NCBI RefSeq assembly: GCF_027604915.1
Contig: NZ_JAJAQC010000052.1
Coordinates: forward strand, 1-54,612
DNA length: 54,612 bases
Origin: Streptomonospora mangrovi
GTDB lineage: Bacteria; Actinomycetota; Actinomycetes; Streptosporangiales; Streptosporangiaceae
Direction: 5' to 3'
The notes beneath the pieces are model-generated. The model worked only from the letters and a program-made list of their open reading frames with translations. It ran no database searches and was not told the origin of the DNA. Numbering within the stretch: the first letter of the stretch is position 1; each line of letters starts with the position of its first letter. Below, one piece after another: positions 18,478 to 26,982 of the stretch. Made by a program: the position numbers and the translations under genes.

Positions 18478-18502
18478 GTGACCAGACGTCGTGTCCGGTC
18501 AC
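18478..18502 (+). promoter_or_regulatory. Hairpin in leader of efflux gene
   Basis: GTGACC (18478-18483) pairs with GGTCAC (18497-18502); after an A/C mismatch GAC pairs with GTC around a five-base loop. It ends ten bases before the CGGAG ribosome site (18512-18516), so it could gate translation or transcription. Confidence 0.45.
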
Positions 18503-18523
18503 TCACCACCTCGGAGCCACTCG

Positions 18524-19702
18524 ATGCCCCTGCCCCTCTACCTCCTCGCCCTGGCCGTGTTCGCCATGGGCACCTCGGAGTTCATGCTCGCCGGCCTGCT
18601 GGCCGACATCGCCGCCGACCTCGGCGTCCCGCTGGCCACGACGGGCCTGCTGACCTCGGCCTTCGCCGTCGGCATCGGCGCCGGCGCCCCCCTCATGGCC
18701 GCCCTGTCGCGCACCTGGCCCCGGCGCACCGCCCTGCTGTGCTTCCTCGGGCTGTTCCTGGGCGCCCACGTGGTGGGCGCGCTCACCGGGAGTCTTGCGG
18801 TGCTGCTGGCCACCCGCGTCGTCGCGGCGCTGGCCAACGCCGGGTTCCTGGCGGTGGCCATGACCACCGCCGCCGGCCTCGTTCCGGCCGACCGCACGGG
18901 GCGGGCGCTGGCGGTCCTGCTCAGCGGCACCACCCTCGCCACCATCGCCGGGGTGCCCGGCGGCGCGCTCCTGGGCGCGCTGCTGGACTGGCGCGCCACG
19001 TTCTGGGCCGTCGCGCTGCTGTGCCTGCCGGCGGCGCTGGGCGTGCTGCGCGGTGTCCCGGCCGGTCCGCCCGCGCGCGGCGGCGCCGCCGGCCCGGCCC
19101 TGCGCGGCGAACTCGCCGAGCTGCGGCGCCCGCGCCTGCTGCTGGTCCTGGTGCTGGGGGCGCTGGTGAACGCGGCGACCTTCGCCACCTTCACCTTCCT
19201 CTCCCCCATCACCACCGGCACCGCCGGGCTCGGGGCGCTGTGGGTGCCGGTGGTGCTGGTGCTCTTCGGTCTGGGCTCCTTCGCCGGGGTCACCGCCGCC
19301 GGGCGGCTGGCCGACCGCCGCCCCGGCCTGGTGGTCGGGGTCGGCGGGCCGCTGCTGCTCACCGGCTGGGTCGCACTCGGCCTGACCGCCGCCCACCCGG
19401 CGGCCCTGCTGGTGCTGGTGTTCGCGCAGGGCGCGCTGTCCTTCGGCCTGGGCGGCACGCTGATCGCCCGCGTGCTCCACGAGGGCGCGGGCGCGCCCAC
19501 CATGGCGGGCTCCTACGCCACCGCCGCCCTCAACGCTGGCGCCGCGATCGGCCCCGCCGTCGCCGGTGCGGCCCTGGGCGCCGGGGCGGCCGGGCTGGGG
19601 CCGGTGTGGGTCAGCGCCGCCCTGGTGGCGGCCGCGCTGTGCGTGGCGGCGCCGTTCCACCGCGCCCTCGCGGCCGGCGCCCCGGCGCGGCAGCGGACCT
19701 AG
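18524..19702 (+). CDS. cmx: Cmx/CmrA-family chloramphenicol efflux MFS transporter
   Basis: Twelve-TM drug:proton antiporter, 392 aa, exporting chloramphenicol-type drugs. The N-terminus LYLLALAVFAMGTSEFMLAG with DIAADLGV and TTGLLTSAFAVG is the signature of Cmx/CmrA pumps; LSRTWPRRTALL is the loop 2-3 motif, and GTTLATIAGVPGGALLGALLD is antiporter motif C. ATG 18524 is chosen because CGGAG lies seven bases upstream and the first TM helix begins at once; an upstream in-frame GTG at 18491 lies inside the leader hairpin. The preceding short ORF and hairpin suggest induction by ribosome-targeting drugs. Family call firm, drug range not proven. Confidence 0.88.
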   Translation: MPLPLYLLALAVFAMGTSEFMLAGLLADIAADLGVPLATTGLLTSAFAVGIGAGAPLMAALSRTWPRRTALLCFLGLFLGAHVVGALTGSLAVLLATRVVAALANAGFLAVAMTTAAGLVPADRTGRALAVLLSGTTLATIAGVPGGALLGALLDWRATFWAVALLCLPAALGVLRGVPAGPPARGGAAGPALRGELAELRRPRLLLVLVLGALVNAATFATFTFLSPITTGTAGLGALWVPVVLVLFGLGSFAGVTAAGRLADRRPGLVVGVGGPLLLTGWVALGLTAAHPAALLVLVFAQGALSFGLGGTLIARVLHEGAGAPTMAGSYATAALNAGAAIGPAVAGAALGAGAAGLGPVWVSAALVAAALCVAAPFHRALAAGAPARQRT

Positions 19703-20354: not shown

Positions 20355-20727
20355 TGGTGGAGGTGGCGGGAATCGAACCCGCGTCCTTCGATGACGTACA
20401 AGGGCTTCTCCGAGCGCAGTCCGTGCTGCCGTTCTGCTCGGCTCCAGCGCTCCCACGAACAGGTCGCTGACGAGCCCAGCCACGAAAATGTCCCGCTCAG
20501 GCCCCGTGGCCTGATCTGAGCGGTAAGTCCCCTGAACGATGCCGGACACCGGGTCGAGGACGCACCCGGGCCGACAGAGTCGCTATCGCTTAGGCAGCGA
20601 GAGCGAACTCAGTGCGCTTGGAATTGGCACTTGTGTTTAGCGCGAAAGCAGGATTAACGAGGTTACTTCCGCAATCCTCGGCTCGCTTCCCCTCATACGG
20701 CGATCGAAGTCGAAACCGATCACCCCC
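20355..20727 (-). ncRNA. ssrA: Transfer-messenger RNA (tmRNA)
   Basis: Ribosome-rescue RNA that works with SmpB. The 5' end GGGGGTG (20727-20721) pairs over seven positions with the 3' strand before A-CCA (20358-20355 region), allowing one G-U pair. The T-arm reads GGTTCGATTCCCGCC-like before the CCA, and GATCGGTTTCGACTTCG follows the 5' acceptor strand as usual. The tag frame runs 20628-20590: GCC resume codon, then ANSKRTEFALAA and TAA. The tag is the one I recall for Thermobifida fusca. CCA is encoded. SmpB lies 2.6 kb upstream on the same strand, the common actinobacterial arrangement but here separated by an inserted PBP-like gene. Confidence 0.95.
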
Positions 20728-21288: not shown

Positions 21289-23328
21289 CTACTGCGGCAC
21301 GGCCTCCGTGCCGGGCGCCGGAACCGTCGGCGTCGCGCCGGCGCCGGGCTGCTCCTGGCCGGCCGTGTCGCCCTGCGGGGCGGTGTCGGCCGCGTCGGGC
21401 GCCTCCCCGCCGTCCTGGGCCAGGCCCTCGGCGTACCCGGCGGGCAGGGTCTGGAGGAAGGACCCGGCGGCGGTGACCGCGTACTGCTCCCACAGTTGGA
21501 TGGAGGGGTCCACCTCGGCCACCACGGCGAACGCCAGCGGCCCCTGGTAGCCCACGAACCACTGCACCGCCGTGTTCTGGCCCCGCACCTTCTGCTGGGT
21601 GTTGGCCACCTGGCCGTGCACCGGCAGCGTGGTGCCGACGTTGGCGCCAGTGGCGCTCTGCTCCACCACCGCGCGCATCATGTCCTGGACCTGCCCGATC
21701 GCCTGCGGGTCGAGGTCGTGGGACTCCCCGCCCTGCACGTTGGCGGCGTCGTCGTCGGCCACCAGGCGCGGCGCGTGCCAGGTGCCGTCGGCCACGGCGC
21801 CGGCCACCATCGCCATCGACAGCGGGCTCACCCGCACCCGGTCGACGCCGGCCATGGCGGCGGCGGTGTCGGCCGGGGTCTCGGGCGTGGAGAAGTTGCC
21901 GTTGTAGGTGGGGACCGACAGCCGCCAGTCGCCGCCGATGCCGAACCGGGCGGCGGCCGACTCGATCGCCTCGGCGCCCACCTGCTCGCCCATCCGCGCG
22001 AAGGCGGTGGTGCAGGCGTAGGTGAAGTTGGTGGTGAGGTCGGGCAGTCCCGACAGCCCCGTGTTGTTGGGGGTGCGGAACGTGCGGTCGCCCACACGGG
22101 TCTGGTTCTCGCAGGCCATGGTGTCGGCCGGGCGCATGCCGCTCTCCAGCGCGGCGGTGGCCGACACGATGCTGAACGCCTCGCCGGGGCGGTACTCGGC
22201 GGTGAACGCGCCGGTGTCGTCGTCGCCGCCCTGGTTGCCCACGGCCGCCAGGATCTCGCCGGTGCGGGCGTCGAGGGCCACCAGGTAGCCCCGGCCGGGC
22301 AGGGCCGCCAGCGCGGACTCCCCCGCCTCCTGCGCGCGCAGGTCCAGCGTGGTGGTCAGCGACCCGCTCTCCATGCCGGGCCACGAGTGCAGGGTGCCGG
22401 TCTCCTGGCCCTGGGCGTCGACGGTGACCACCGCCGTGGTGGCGGTGCCGGCCAGCCGCTGCTGGAAGACGTTCTGCAAGCCGGTGAGGCCCACGGTGTC
22501 GCCGGCCTGGTAGGTGCCGGCCACGCGGGAGGAGACGTTGTGCTCGGCGGTGCCGGCGACCTGGCCGATAACCGCCTCGGCGGCGCGCGGGTTGAGCCGC
22601 ATCTCCAGCTTCTGCGTCTGTACCCCCGGGATCTCCTTGGCGCGCCGCTCGACGTCGGCCCCGACGTCGCCCTGGCGCATCAGCACCAAGGGCTGGAACT
22701 CCTGCGGCGGCGCCGAGCGCACCCGGTCCAGCAGCGGGTCGGAGTCCTCGCCGAGGAGTTCGGCGAGGTCGGCCACGCCGCGCTCCATGTCGCGCATCTC
22801 GGCGGGGACCACGCCGAAGGCGGTGACGGCGTCGGTGCCCACGAGCGGCTGGTCGTTGCGGTCGAGGATCTGGCCCCGGTCGGGCACGTCGTAGCTGACG
22901 GCGATGCGCTCGTCTTCGCCGAGTTCGGGGTGGATGACCGAGGGCGACCACTCGATGGCCCACCCCGCCGGCCCGCGCGCCAGGTTCATGGAGCCGTCGA
23001 AGTTCCACACGGGGTCGCCGATGCCGAGGTCGGCCTGCCCCTCGAACGCGGCGGTGGCGGTGTCGCCGTCCTGGCTGATCTTGCCCAGCGAGAACCGCAG
23101 TCCGGCGAGGTCGAGCTGGCGGTGGGTGTCCTCCAGCGCCTCGGCGACCTCCTCGGGGTCCCCGTCGGTCTGCTGGGCGGCGGCCGCGTACTCGCCGGCC
23201 TGCCAGTTCAGCAGGAACGTGCGGACCGCGACCTCGGGGCTGGGCTGGGTGGTGCAGCCGGTGACGACGGCCGCGGTGGCCAGCCCGGTGCCCGCTGCGA
23301 GGAGTCGGCGGAGGTGACGGGGGGACAC
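21289..23328 (-). CDS. Penicillin-binding-protein-like lipoprotein, catalytic motifs lost
   Basis: A 679-aa lipoprotein (lipobox VVTGC, Cys25) with an NTF2-like N-terminal domain (residues 28-140, as in MecA), a dimerisation region, and a transpeptidase fold (about 320-650). The fold is clear: GYLVALDARTGEILAAV, then SIVSATAALESG, TTNFTYACTTAFARMG, and AVQWFVGYQGPLAFAVV. The catalytic residues are not: the SxxK position reads PGEAFS (Glu383, Ser386), SxN reads ACT (Ala438, Thr440), and no KTG occurs where VANTQQKVRG stands. It should therefore be a binding or scaffold pseudoenzyme rather than a DD-transpeptidase. GTG 23328 has AAAGGAA seven bases ahead. It lies 23 bases after smpB, co-transcribed with smpB and probably ftsEX. 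Confidence 0.88.
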   Translation of the reverse strand: MSPRHLRRLLAAGTGLATAAVVTGCTTQPSPEVAVRTFLLNWQAGEYAAAAQQTDGDPEEVAEALEDTHRQLDLAGLRFSLGKISQDGDTATAAFEGQADLGIGDPVWNFDGSMNLARGPAGWAIEWSPSVIHPELGEDERIAVSYDVPDRGQILDRNDQPLVGTDAVTAFGVVPAEMRDMERGVADLAELLGEDSDPLLDRVRSAPPQEFQPLVLMRQGDVGADVERRAKEIPGVQTQKLEMRLNPRAAEAVIGQVAGTAEHNVSSRVAGTYQAGDTVGLTGLQNVFQQRLAGTATTAVVTVDAQGQETGTLHSWPGMESGSLTTTLDLRAQEAGESALAALPGRGYLVALDARTGEILAAVGNQGGDDDTGAFTAEYRPGEAFSIVSATAALESGMRPADTMACENQTRVGDRTFRTPNNTGLSGLPDLTTNFTYACTTAFARMGEQVGAEAIESAAARFGIGGDWRLSVPTYNGNFSTPETPADTAAAMAGVDRVRVSPLSMAMVAGAVADGTWHAPRLVADDDAANVQGGESHDLDPQAIGQVQDMMRAVVEQSATGANVGTTLPVHGQVANTQQKVRGQNTAVQWFVGYQGPLAFAVVAEVDPSIQLWEQYAVTAAGSFLQTLPAGYAEGLAQDGGEAPDAADTAPQGDTAGQEQPGAGATPTVPAPGTEAVPQ

Positions 23329-23351: not shown

Positions 23352-23816
23352 TCAGCGGCGGCGCCGGAGCGCGCGCTCGATGTCGCGTTTGGCCTCGCGC
23401 TCGGCGATGTCTTGGCGTTTGTCGTAGCTGCGCTTACCGCGGGCAAGCGCGATCTCCACCTTGGCCCGGCCCTCGCTGAAGTACAGCGAGAGCGGGACCA
23501 GCGTGCGGCCGGGCTCGGCGGTCTTGCCGATGAGCCGGGAGATCTCCTCGCGGTGCAGCAGCAGCTTACGGGGTCGGCGCGCGGCGTGGTTGGTCCAGGT
23601 CCCGTGGGCGTACTCGGGGATGTGGACGTTCTCCAGCCACACCTCGCCGTCCTTGACCTGGGCGAACCCGTCGACAAGGGAGGCGCGTCCGGCCCGCAGC
23701 GACTTGACCTCGGTGCCGGTCAGGACGATGCCCGCCTCGTAGGTGTCGTCGATGTGGTAGTCGTGCCGGGCCCGCCGGTTCTGCGCGATGAGCTTGCGCC
23801 CCTTTTCCCGTGCCAC
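23352..23816 (-). CDS. smpB: SsrA-binding protein SmpB
   Basis: Cytoplasmic tmRNA partner, 154 aa, needed for trans-translation. It shows the OB-fold sequence [20 protein letters not shown], the conserved [23 protein letters not shown], and the C-terminal [18 protein letters not shown] that folds into the mRNA path. GTG 23816. Between ftsX (52 bases upstream) and the PBP-like gene (23 bases downstream), so an operon is likely. The cognate ssrA lies downstream on the same strand. Confidence 0.97.
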
Positions 23817-23868: not shown

Positions 23869-24777
23869 TCAGACCCGCAGGTAGCGCCGCAGCGTCAGGA
23901 ACGACGCGACGGTGCACAGCAGCACGCCGAGGATCAGCGAGACGCCGATCACCGACAGCAGGGAGCCGGTGGAGAGGGTGACGTCGAACTGGAACCACTC
24001 CTGGATCCGGCTCAGCAGCAGGAAGCGCGCCGCGACGATGAACCCGGAGGCGATGATGCCGCCGATGAGGCCGGCGATGGCGCCCTCCAGGAGGAACGGC
24101 AGTTGGATGTAGAAGTTGGACGCACCCACCAGGCGCATGATGCCGGTCTCCTTGCGGCGGCTGTAGGCCGCGAGGCGGACGGTGTTGCCGATGAGCAGGG
24201 CGGCGGCGGCCAACTGCACGAACGCGACGGTGAGCGCGGCGGCGGTCAGGCCGTCGAGCAGGCCGAAGAACTGCTCCAGCACGGCCTGGTCGTCGTAGAT
24301 GGAGTCGATGCCGGGGCTGCCCTCGATGTTGCTGGACACGGCCTCGTACTGGCTGGGGTCGACCAACTGGACCCGGAAGTTGTCGGGGATGTCACCCTCG
24401 CGGACGGCCTCGACCATCGCCTCGTTGTTGGCGAAGCGCTCCTGGAAGTCCTGGAAGGCGTCCTCGGCGCTGATGTACTCGACGCTGCTGACCTCGTCCA
24501 TGCTTTCCAAGGCGCTCTGGACGTCCTGGCGCTGCTGGTCGGTGGCCGGACCGTTCTCCTGACACGTGTTGGAGGTGGAGATCTCCGTGCACATGTAGAC
24601 GGTGAGGGTCACGCGCTCGTCCCAGTACTGGCGCATCTGCGTCACCTGCTGGTTGATCAGCAGGCCGCCGCCGAACAGGGCGAGCGAGATGGCCACCGTG
24701 ACGATGACCGCGACGGTCATCGTCAGGTTGCGACGCAGACCGATCCAGATCTCGGAAAGAACGAATTGAGCTCGCAT
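23869..24777 (-). CDS. ftsX: Cell-division ABC transporter permease FtsX
   Basis: Membrane partner of FtsE, 302 aa, that activates peptidoglycan hydrolases at the division site. There is one TM helix (residues about 20-42), a large extracytoplasmic loop (about 45-170, containing a [11 protein letters not shown] Cys pair), and three C-terminal TM helices with [20 protein letters not shown], the coupling segment. ATG 24777 is preferred over earlier in-frame codons because [17 protein letters not shown] is the conserved start. It lies 75 bases after ftsE and 52 before smpB. Confidence 0.95.
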
Positions 24778-24852: not shown

Positions 24853-25542
24853 TCAGTACGCCTGGCCGTAGACGCCGCGGGACTGGTCGCGCACGACCTC
24901 GCCCTCTTCGAGCTCGATGACGCGCTTGCGCATCGAGTCGACGATGGCGGCGTCGTGAGTCGCCATGACAACGGTCGTCCCGGTCCGGTTGATTCGGTCC
25001 AGCACCTTCATGATGCCGATCGATGTGGCGGGGTCGATGTTTCCCGTCGGCTCGTCGGCCAGCAGGATCTGCGGCCGGTTCACGAACGCGCGCGCGATGG
25101 CGACCCGCTGCTGCTCGCCGCCCGACAGTTCGTCGGGCATGCGGTCGGCCTTGCCTTCGAGGCCGACGAGTTCGACCACCTCCGGGACGACCTTGCGGAT
25201 GAACCGCCGGGGCTTGCCGATGACCTCCAAGGCGAACGCGACGTTCTCGAAGACGTTCTTGTTCGGCAGCAGCCGGAAGTCCTGGAACACGCAGCCGATA
25301 CGCCGACGCAGGTGCGGCACCTTCCAGTTGGACAGGCGCGCGAGGTCCTTGCCGGCGACGTGCACGCGGCCCCGCGTGGGCTTCTCCTCCTTGAGGACAA
25401 GCCGCAGGAAGGTCGACTTGCCCGACCCCGAGGGGCCGACGAGGAAGACGAACTCCCCCTTGTCGACGTCGATCGTAACGTCCTCCAACGCAGGGCGCTT
25501 CTGGGTCGGATAGACCTTGGTGACGTTCTCAAAGTGGATCAC
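24853..25542 (-). CDS. ftsE: Cell-division ABC transporter ATPase FtsE
   Basis: Cytoplasmic ATPase of 229 aa driving FtsX. Walker [10 protein letters not shown] near residue 37, Q-loop CVFQDFRLL, signature [14 protein letters not shown], Walker [13 protein letters not shown], and the switch His in [12 protein letters not shown] 25542 begins the standard [13 protein letters not shown]-terminus. It heads ftsE-ftsX-smpB-PBP, with prfB 324 bases upstream. Confidence 0.96.
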
Positions 25543-25866: not shown

Positions 25867-26982
25867 CTACCCCTCGGCCGCCTCCTGGCTGCGCATCCAG
25901 CGGATCTCGGCGTCGATGAACGCGTCGATCTCGCCGTCGAGGATCGCACTGGGATTGCCGGACTCCGCGCCGGTGCGGACGTCCTTGACGCTCTGGTAGG
26001 GGTGCAGCACGTAGTTGCGCATCTGGGTGCCCCAACTGCTGACGCTCTCGCCGCGGAGTTCGTCCAGCTCGGCGCGCTCCTCGCGGCGCTTGCGCTCCAG
26101 CAGCTTGGCCTGGAGCATCGACATGGCCGTGGCGCGGTTCTGGATCTGGGAGCGCTCGTTCTGGCAGGAGGTCACGATCCCGGTGGGCAGGTGGGTGATG
26201 CGCACTGCGGAGTCGGTGGTGTTGACGCCCTGGCCGCCGGGGCCGCTGGAGCGGTAGACGTCGATGCGGAGTTCGCTCTCGTCGATGTCGATGTGGTCGC
26301 TCTGCTCCACGACCGGCACCACGTCCACGCCCGCGAACGAGGTCTGGCGGCGGTTCTGGTTGTCGAACGGCGAGATGCGCACCAGGCGGTGGGTGCCGTG
26401 CTCGCCGCGCAGGGTGCCGTAGGCGAAGGGCGCCTTGACGACGAAGCTGGTGGACTTGATGCCGGCTTCCTCGGCGTAGGAGGTCTCGTAGACCTCGGTG
26501 GGGTAGCCGTGGCGTTCGGCCCAGCGGAGGTACATGCGCTGGAGCATCTGCGCCCAGTCGGCGGCGTCGACCCCGCCGGCCTGGGAGTTGATGGTGACCA
26601 GGGCCTCGCGTTCGTCGTAGGGGCCGTTGAGCAGGGTGCGGACCTCAAGCTCGCCGATGTCGCCGCGCAGGGAGTCGAGTTCGGAGTCGGCCTCGGCGAG
26701 GGTGTCGGCGTCGTCCTCGGAGGCGGCCAGCTCGTAGAGCACGCTGAGGTCGTCGAGGCGGCGCCGGATGCTGCCGACCTTGCCCACGGTGGATTCGAGG
26801 TTGGAGAGCCTGCGGGTGACCTTCTGCGCCTCGCCGGGGTCGTTCCACAGCTCGGGGTCGGCGGACTGCTCGCGCAGCTCCTCGATCTCGCGCTGCTTGG
26901 CGTCGAGGTCGAGCACGGCCTCGACGCTCGCCAGCGTCGACGAGAGTTCCTTGATCTTTTCCGCGGGGTCTAGGTCTGCCAC
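25867..26982 (-). CDS. prfB: Peptide chain release factor 2
   Basis: Terminates translation at UGA and UAA. 371 aa, continuous in one frame, without the programmed frameshift (CUUUGA) of many bacteria. The stop-codon recognition motif SPF is present ([12 protein letters not shown]), and the GGQ loop reads [21 protein letters not shown] 26982 has no Shine-Dalgarno; TAGACT (26995-26990) lies seven bases upstream, which suggests a leaderless mRNA. Followed on the same strand by ftsEX-smpB as in many actinobacteria. Confidence 0.96.

What the first reader, a model, noticed from the sequence alone, without database searches (positions are those of the whole stretch)
21289..23328. Penicillin-binding lipoprotein with all three catalytic motifs replaced, in the smpB operon
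The transpeptidase fold is well preserved (GYLVALDARTGEILAAV, SIVSATAALESG, WFVGYQGPLAFAVV), yet SxxK is ExxS (PGEAFS), SxN is AxT (ACTTAF), and KTG is absent (VANTQQKVRG). Loss of all three with an intact frame points to selection for a non-enzymatic role, such as a regulator or partner of active PBPs or of FtsEX, with which it appears co-transcribed.
Basis: partly seen in the sequence, partly recalled or inferred. Interest (0 to 1): 0.8.

Follow-up and report, generated by a model that had tools for sequence, protein, structure and literature searches.

The report
Dead penicillin-binding protein beside smpB
A large family of soil actinobacteria carries a cell-wall-building enzyme look-alike that lost its whole active site long ago yet has been kept in the same place in the genome, so it most likely now works as a binding or regulatory part rather than as an enzyme.

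Summary
The minus-strand gene at 21289-23328 codes for a 679-aa lipoprotein, MecA_N + PBP_dimer + Transpeptidase, with SxxK, SxN and KTG replaced. It is neither local decay nor a sequencing error: among 157 distinct orthologues 0 keep the SxxK lysine and 0 of the 154 readable there keep the KTG lysine. The gene follows smpB, with ftsE-ftsX before and usually ssrA after. In the order sample 244 of 245 genomes of the family match; in the other the contig ends inside the gene. At the same place in a sister family of the order and in two other families of the class the PBP is intact. So an active enzyme was probably disarmed once (clade support 100/100) and then kept: dN/dS 0.205 against 0.239 for an active paralogue. 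Over longer distances constraint has moved from the transpeptidase to the MecA_N domain. Best reading: a non-enzymatic, membrane-anchored binding or regulatory module of the wall machinery. A specific FtsEX link is not shown. I found no description in the open papers searched; the main actinobacterial PBP review was not readable.

The parts
21289..23328 (-). pseudo-PBP gene (679 aa lipoprotein, class B PBP architecture, catalytic motifs lost)
23254..23256 (-). lipobox cysteine C25 (VVTGC), nearly invariant in the 62-row alignment
22912..23238 (-). MecA_N (NTF2-like) domain, residues 31-139; more conserved than in the active paralogue in 16 matched genomes
22393..22887 (-). PBP_dimer (pedestal) domain, residues 148-312
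21544..22290 (-). transpeptidase domain, residues 347-595, fold intact in the model
22171..22182 (-). SxxK position (residues 383-386), here EAFS
22009..22017 (-). SxN position (residues 438-440), here ACT; Cys439 kept
21604..21612 (-). KTG position (residues 573-575), here QVA
23352..23816 (-). smpB, directly upstream (23 bp)
23869..24777 (-). ftsX (start taken as ATG 24777; the listed open frame begins at GTG 24819)
24853..25542 (-). ftsE
25867..26982 (-). prfB (release factor 2; name recalled from its translation, not scanned against a library)
20355..20727 (-). ssrA (tmRNA), 561 bp after the pseudo-PBP

Best explanation
It is a naturally dead class B penicillin-binding protein (a pseudo-transpeptidase). 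SHOWN BY COMPARISON: the gene after smpB is an active MecA_N-type class B PBP in neighbouring families, and in the family that holds Streptomonospora, Nocardiopsis, Thermobifida, Nonomuraea, Streptosporangium and Actinomadura (plus one genome of a second family, G037) it has lost the SxxK lysine, the KTG lysine and nearly always the SxN asparagine; these dead copies are one clade and the protein is kept, with lipid anchor, NTF2-like MecA_N domain, pedestal domain and an intact transpeptidase fold in the model. INFERRED: a single early loss; it no longer crosslinks peptidoglycan or binds beta-lactams covalently, but works outside the membrane by binding. The selected surface is chiefly the MecA_N domain, with the pedestal and transpeptidase domains as scaffold, and the partner is most likely a component of the septal or lateral wall-building machinery (a SEDS glycosyltransferase, an active PBP, or a hydrolase controller), or nascent peptidoglycan itself. 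Crosslinking is left to active PBPs, including the separate active MecA_N paralogue. Rough split: non-enzymatic and under selection 0.9; MecA_N-centred binding role in wall assembly 0.5.
For: Motifs: SxxK lysine 0 of 157, KTG lysine 0 of 154 readable. Spread: 244 of 245 genomes of the family in the order draw match strongly, and in the one miss the contig ends inside the gene; dead or alive was read in the 157 sequences, not in all 245 genomes. Position: smpB upstream within 1.5 kb in 30 of 30 (26 of them within about 125 bp), in 78 of 80 named loci and in 53 of 53 further loci, about 10 of which repeat genomes already counted; tmRNA gene downstream in 26 of 30 and found in 76 of 80 named loci. 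Origin: intact PBP at the same place in G038-G040, G046 and G126. One clade: 100/100 with 22 rows. Constraint: dN/dS 0.205 whole gene, 0.064 pedestal, 0.226 transpeptidase, against 0.239 for the active paralogue in the same pair; 16 further pairs chosen for closeness have a median of 0.278. Shift of constraint in 16 matched genomes: MecA_N identity 0.499 against 0.395 in the active paralogue (ratio 1.26, bootstrap 1.15-1.40), transpeptidase 0.418 against 0.543, active-site segments 0.440 against 0.661. Of ten positions newly fixed in the dead clade, seven (30, 35, 56, 73, 75, 100, 102) lie in or at the edge of MecA_N. Fold: model pLDDT 88, pTM 0.84; best PDB match B. subtilis PBP3. Precedent: catalytically dead B. 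subtilis PBP2B still supports division (PMC5656894, summary and passages); C. difficile PBP3 aids asymmetric division without its catalysis (PMC12713402, passages).
Against: No partner is identified. The gene neighbourhood is inherited from the active ancestor, so it says little about the new role. dN/dS is higher than for ftsX (0.179) and smpB (0.088) in the 16 pairs, and in the closest pair, G000/G003, the signal-plus-MecA_N region is the loosest part (0.511), which does not agree with the longer-range domain result. The sixteen matched genomes are related, so the bootstrap is not fully independent. In the G000/G003 pair and in the 16 pairs the pedestal or N-terminal part is at least as constrained as MecA_N alone could explain. 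The tree does not resolve the dead clade's sister group (AU p 0.216 for grouping with the smpB-linked actives). A few copies look broken: L135 and G353, where the frame stops early.
Confidence: 0.6

Rival explanations
1. It is an unselected, decaying copy kept only because it sits between two useful genes (smpB and ssrA).
For: Transpeptidase domain and active-site segments have relaxed relative to the active paralogue; among the loci read, L135 is broken into shorter frames and the G353 copy stops early.
Against: A long open frame in nearly all orthologues listed, in about 50 genera; dN/dS under 0.5 in all 16 pairs and close to the active paralogue's in the closest pair; invariant residues remain in all three domains.
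Confidence: 0.07
2. It is a partner or activator of FtsEX, as EnvC (a degenerate hydrolase; recalled) is in E. coli, coupling FtsEX to wall hydrolases.
For: ftsE, ftsX and smpB lie on the PBP's strand before it in 78 of 80 loci; extracellular lipoprotein anchor; rates of FtsX and of the pedestal domain covary after removing prfB and ftsE (partial r 0.66 over pairs of 68 loci).
Against: The same order surrounds the active PBP orthologues; FtsX and SmpB, not known to interact (recalled), covary nearly as much (0.57), and SmpB with the pedestal 0.51; FtsX with the MecA_N domain only 0.32. A gene reading as an S41 protease separates ftsX from smpB in the 4 of 9 wide-gap loci that I translated.
Confidence: 0.15
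3. It is still an acyl-transferring enzyme that uses another nucleophile, for example the serine or threonine that stands where the SxxK lysine was.
For: Ser or Thr at that position in 126 of 157; Cys439 and Cys406 are invariant in the 62-row alignment.
Against: The position is Gly in 30 and Gln in 1 of 157; Cys406 and Cys439 are conserved in the active enzymes too, so they look like a structural pair; active-site segments are hardly better conserved than the rest of the domain (0.440 against 0.413, whereas 0.661 against 0.518 in the active paralogue); I saw no conserved replacement base.
Confidence: 0.04
4. It is a peptidoglycan sensor: the NTF2-like/lobe region binds nascent wall, as the allosteric site of PBP2a does, and signals to other synthases.
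For: Same fold as PBP2a, for which a complex with a peptidoglycan analogue at an allosteric site is solved (entry title of 3zg5); constraint moved to MecA_N.
Against: The ligand site of PBP2a was not mapped onto this protein here (no coordinates could be compared); no signal partner known.
Confidence: 0.14

Closest known systems
Bacillus subtilis PBP3 (PbpC), S. aureus PBP2a, E. faecium PBP5 (MecA_N-bearing class B PBPs)
   Same: Domain order MecA_N, PBP_dimer, Transpeptidase; best sequence and fold matches (TM-scores 0.53-0.64 by query length).
   Different: Those are enzymes with SxxK/SxN/KTG (recalled, and PMC5656894 passages for PBP3's serine); this protein and its orthologues lack them.
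smpB-linked intact class B PBPs of sister families (loci L086, L087, L089-L091)
   Same: Same genomic place (ftsE-ftsX-smpB-PBP) and same architecture.
   Different: All motifs intact; tmRNA gene found near only in G126 and, 2.7 kb off, in G046.
Catalytic-dead laboratory mutants: B. subtilis PBP2B(S309A), C. difficile PBP3(S299A)
   Same: Show that a class B PBP can serve division without catalysis (PMC5656894, PMC12713402, passages read).
   Different: Engineered single substitutions in otherwise active enzymes; here the loss is natural, nearly complete and ancient.
EnvC and other degenerate LytM factors (recalled, no call)
   Same: A wall enzyme that lost its catalytic residues and became a regulator working with FtsEX.
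   Different: Different fold; FtsEX link not shown here.
Class A PBPs of Streptomyces lacking SxxK (Molecules 2016, PMC6273383; its PBP section read whole)
   Same: Report of actinobacterial PBP sequences without SxxK.
   Different: Class A, SxN and KTG mostly kept, a minority of sequences, judged by the author able to function as PBPs.

Membership tests
class B PBP, MecA_N-bearing subgroup | PBP_dimer plus Transpeptidase domains, no glycosyltransferase domain | tested here: met
   only three Pfam domains found, all over cut-off
class B PBP, MecA_N-bearing subgroup | N-terminal MecA_N (NTF2-like) domain | tested here: met
   (44.8 bits, cut-off 22)
class B PBP, MecA_N-bearing subgroup | PBP2a-like overall fold | tested here: met
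   (predicted model)
class B PBP, MecA_N-bearing subgroup | catalytic SxxK, SxN and KTG motifs | tested here: not met
class B PBP, MecA_N-bearing subgroup | covalent penicillin binding / DD-transpeptidase activity | not testable with these tools
   predicted absent from the motif loss
MecA / PBP2a beta-lactam resistance family (NCBIfam) | score over the curated cut-off | tested here: not met
   54.3 bits against 750 for MECA_PBP2A
FtsEX regulator of the EnvC type | coiled coil plus LytM/M23 (or NlpC/P60) domain (recalled) | tested here: not met
   only PBP domains; a functional analogy stays open
lipoprotein | signal peptide with lipobox cysteine | tested here: met
   (VVTGC, C25), C25 nearly invariant; judged from sequence by eye, no lipidation test

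The most novel reading that the evidence does not exclude
A whole actinobacterial family depends on a dedicated dead PBP whose working part has become the MecA_N domain: a new type of wall regulator made from an enzyme, acting as an obligatory adaptor or peptidoglycan sensor for the septal machinery, and by construction insensitive to beta-lactams.
Probability: 0.25. Interest if true: 0.8.

Novelty: new variant of a known kind. Interest (0 to 1): 0.62.

Why it matters
Laboratory mutants have suggested that class B PBPs do something in division besides crosslinking. Here evolution ran that experiment: the chemistry was removed and the protein kept across about 50 genera, with intact relatives still standing at the same place in sister families and an active paralogue in the same cell. 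That gives a clean comparative system to find what the non-catalytic part of a MecA_N-type PBP is for, which bears on low-affinity PBPs such as PBP2a. It also warns that the automatic name 'penicillin-binding transpeptidase' would mislead for this orthologue group.

Tried and rejected
Recent decay or sequencing error: rejected, the loss is shared by all orthologues read. Local duplicate of the C83 paralogue: disfavoured, ten paralogues of the family and of G037 form their own clade (100/99) and holding them with the dead clade is weakly rejected (AU p 0.030); but the dead clade's exact sister is unresolved. Other nucleophile: no universal candidate. Dedicated SEDS partner by gene count: uninformative, SEDS number runs from 1 (an 83% complete genome) to 5 in the family and is 2 in the f2 and f3 genomes searched. 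Rate covariation with FtsX: not specific. A first genome-contig scan with the single protein found no relative; the alignment query did, keeping the best 80 of 470. Promoter/terminator scan: nothing above chance. NCBIfam: no model over cut-off. Apparent K[TS]G in G031 and PGSxxK-like strings in L088 and L285 lie elsewhere in the proteins. Of the ten transpeptidase hits in the own genome the simple pattern found no SxxK in L185 and L193; one search shows L185 (FtsI-like) intact, while L193 (362-aa frame) could not be read and stays open.

Novelty searches: (open PMC papers only). The review most likely to list these proteins (J Antibiot 2015, 68:223, cited in PMC6273383) is not held, so prior notice of single sequences cannot be excluded.

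Full report
WHAT IS THERE. The gene lies on the minus strand, 23328 down to 21289, 679 codons with a GTG start. It has a signal peptide with lipobox VVTGC, MecA_N at 31-139, PBP_dimer at 148-312 and Transpeptidase at 347-595. It follows smpB by 23 bp; smpB follows ftsX by 52 bp; ftsE and prfB lie before, and the tmRNA gene begins 561 bp after it. The window genome belongs to the genus of Streptomonospora sp. PA3: G004, listed as same genus, has the same protein core and contig length as the PA3 record.

THE MOTIFS. PGEAFS stands for PGSxxK, ACT for SxN, QVA for KTG. Five genomes of the genus (71-94% identical) and more distant ones agree. Over 157 distinct orthologues (156 of the family, and G037 of a second family): SxxK lysine 0, replaced by S 78, T 48, G 30, Q 1; SxxK serine 11; SxN serine 43; SxN asparagine 7; KTG lysine 0 (V 72, Q 59, I 18, L 4, T 1, and 3 gaps). 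A count on 132 sequences, which still holds a few same-genome duplicates, found 57 keeping none of the seven residues and nine keeping three, the maximum. By contrast all 5 smpB-linked active PBPs and all 22 MecA_N-type paralogues read keep SxxK, SxN and the KTG lysine, and all 26 other class members keep the SxxK lysine and SxN; two of these have T for the first serine and TTG for KTG.

HOW WIDE. A relatives search of 60 genomes gave a match in each, though outside the family many are paralogues. A draw of 249 genomes from the order gave strong matches in 248; within the window's family 244 of 245, and the one miss, G161, has its contig end 195 bp after smpB with the start of the gene readable. 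Strength alone does not separate dead from active copies (the three active ones of the neighbouring family score 1e-174 to 1e-186), so I read the motifs in 30 of the lower-scoring genomes too: dead wherever the residues are present; three of these are cut short, two at contig ends and one (G353) by an early stop. By my count the motifs were read in 51 of the 55 genera of the family in the draw. Eighty named loci, the best 80 of 470 hits, span Streptomonospora, Nocardiopsis, Marinactinospora, Thermobifida, Actinomadura, Nonomuraea, Microbispora, Streptosporangium, Sphaerisporangium and others; in all 80 both lysines are gone.

PLACE. smpB lies upstream within 1.5 kb in 30 of 30: within about 125 bp in 26, and 230-730 bp from the start I chose in four (G016, G019, G024, G036), where the true start may be further upstream. 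In the next set smpB was found in L039-L060 (22 of 22) and in L088 and L092-L098 (8 of 8), not in L062, which begins at a contig start. Among the 80 named loci it is there in 78, the exceptions being a contig start (L134) and a second copy in one assembly (L152); in 53 of 53 further loci it is found again, about ten of them genomes counted before. A tmRNA gene is found downstream in 26 of 30 and in 76 of 80. ftsE, ftsX and smpB stand on the PBP's strand in that order in 78 of 80, prfB too in 71 of 80 within the 6 kb flank (my count). In 9 of 80 the gap between ftsX and smpB exceeds 500 bp; in the four of these whose gap I translated it codes for what reads as an S41-type protease (named from recalled sequence features, not scanned).

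ORIGIN. In three genomes of another family of the order (G038-G040) and in G046 and G126 of other families of the class, the gene right after smpB, again after ftsE and ftsX, is an intact PBP of the same architecture. A tmRNA gene was found near it only in G126 and, 2.7 kb away, in G046. The dead copies form one clade with 100/100 support on a tree of 53 rows built without the motif columns (a quick tree of 69 rows agrees). The sister group is not resolved: grouping with the smpB-linked actives is not rejected (p 0.216), grouping with the family's active paralogues is weakly rejected (p 0.030). Synteny is therefore the main argument that the dead gene descends from the smpB-linked active one. 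The f2 genome G037 keeps three of seven residues (S, S, G) and falls inside the dead clade.

STILL SELECTED. Window genome against its 94% relative G003: dN/dS 0.205 for the gene (pedestal 0.064, transpeptidase 0.226, tail 0.219, signal plus MecA_N 0.511), 0.157 smpB, 0.075 ftsX, 0.042 ftsE, and 0.239 for the active MecA_N paralogue over its last 560 codons. In 16 further pairs, chosen by me for closeness among the 80, medians are 0.278 (PBP), 0.320 (transpeptidase part), 0.261 (N-terminal part), 0.179 (ftsX), 0.088 (smpB). So the gene is constrained, about as an active paralogue is, less than its neighbours.

WHERE THE CONSTRAINT SITS. In 16 genomes that have both genes (15 of the family and G037), mean pairwise identity is, dead against active: MecA_N 0.499 / 0.395; pedestal 0.389 / 0.465; linker 0.425 / 0.426; transpeptidase 0.418 / 0.543; active-site segments 0.440 / 0.661. 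In each of the three active groups MecA_N is the least and the transpeptidase the most conserved domain; in the dead clade MecA_N is the most conserved and the pedestal the least. Of ten positions fixed (90% or more) in the dead clade and rare in actives, seven lie at 30-102. The close pair G000/G003 points the other way (MecA_N region loosest, pedestal tightest), which I take as short-range noise but cannot exclude as a warning.

STRUCTURE. AlphaFold2 on 62 sequences gives pLDDT 88 and pTM 0.84 with all three domains. Foldseek's best solved match is B. subtilis PBP3, then PBP2a and E. faecium PBP5. The motif positions fall at the canonical places: start of helix 382-395, the turn before helix 440-450, and strand 570-581.

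CONTEXT IN THE CELL. The window's genome has ten transpeptidase hits and four SEDS proteins. The C83 MecA_N paralogue is intact (SIFK, SCN, KSG), and the FtsI-like L185 is too; one hit, L193, could not be read. Three SEDS genes lie on contigs with a class B PBP gene nearby, one does not (positions). SEDS counts do not track the pseudo-PBP clearly.

HOW IT MOST LIKELY WORKS. Without the lysines of SxxK and KTG and usually without the serine and asparagine, acylation chemistry is not expected. What is kept is a lipid-anchored ectodomain with a binding-type NTF2-like domain now under the strongest long-range constraint. Two precedents show division roles of class B PBPs without catalysis (PMC5656894, PMC12713402; passages read). 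I therefore favour an adaptor or regulator of wall synthesis acting through MecA_N. FtsEX as the partner is possible but rests on gene order that predates the loss, and on rate covariation that is not specific.

NOVELTY. No paper describing this orthologue group was found (searches, open papers only; the 2015 review of actinobacterial PBPs was not readable). As a kind of thing it is a new variant: a pseudoenzyme branch of a known protein family, unusual in being present in every sampled genome of its family, ancient, nearly complete in its loss, and paired with active relatives at the same place and in the same cell.

Noticed in passing
L073, L074 (genomes G052, G075): Class-level MecA_N-type PBPs with TAFK in place of SxxK and TTG in place of KTG: possibly a second, independent start of motif loss.
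   Followed up: no
L152 and L180 (Nonomuraea sp. MG754425): Two pseudo-PBP loci in one assembly; L152 has no smpB in its flanks.
   Followed up: no
L136, L144, L132, L153 (4 of the 9 loci with a wide ftsX-smpB gap): A gene that reads as an S41 carboxy-terminal processing protease lies between ftsX and smpB.
   Followed up: partly
tmRNA genes in the loci: The predicted tmRNA tag varies from 12 to 18 residues (for example ANSKRTEFALAA to ANVKHSEKVSQDSLALAA); the short odd one of G024 may be a miscall.
   Followed up: no
G000:C24:84946-86028 (L198): A fourth SEDS protein with no transpeptidase hit on the same contig among the ten found.
   Followed up: no
G000:C6:22612-23274 (L193): A short transpeptidase-family hit (362-aa frame) in which no catalytic motif was recognised by a simple pattern; a family scan with wrong coordinates failed.
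   Followed up: partly
L135 (Nocardiopsis sp. CNR-923) and L286 (G353): The pseudo-PBP appears interrupted; in L135 the longest open piece is 473 aa. Left as they are.
   Followed up: no
window 18491-19702 (+): An MFS transporter gene beyond the tmRNA gene.
   Followed up: no
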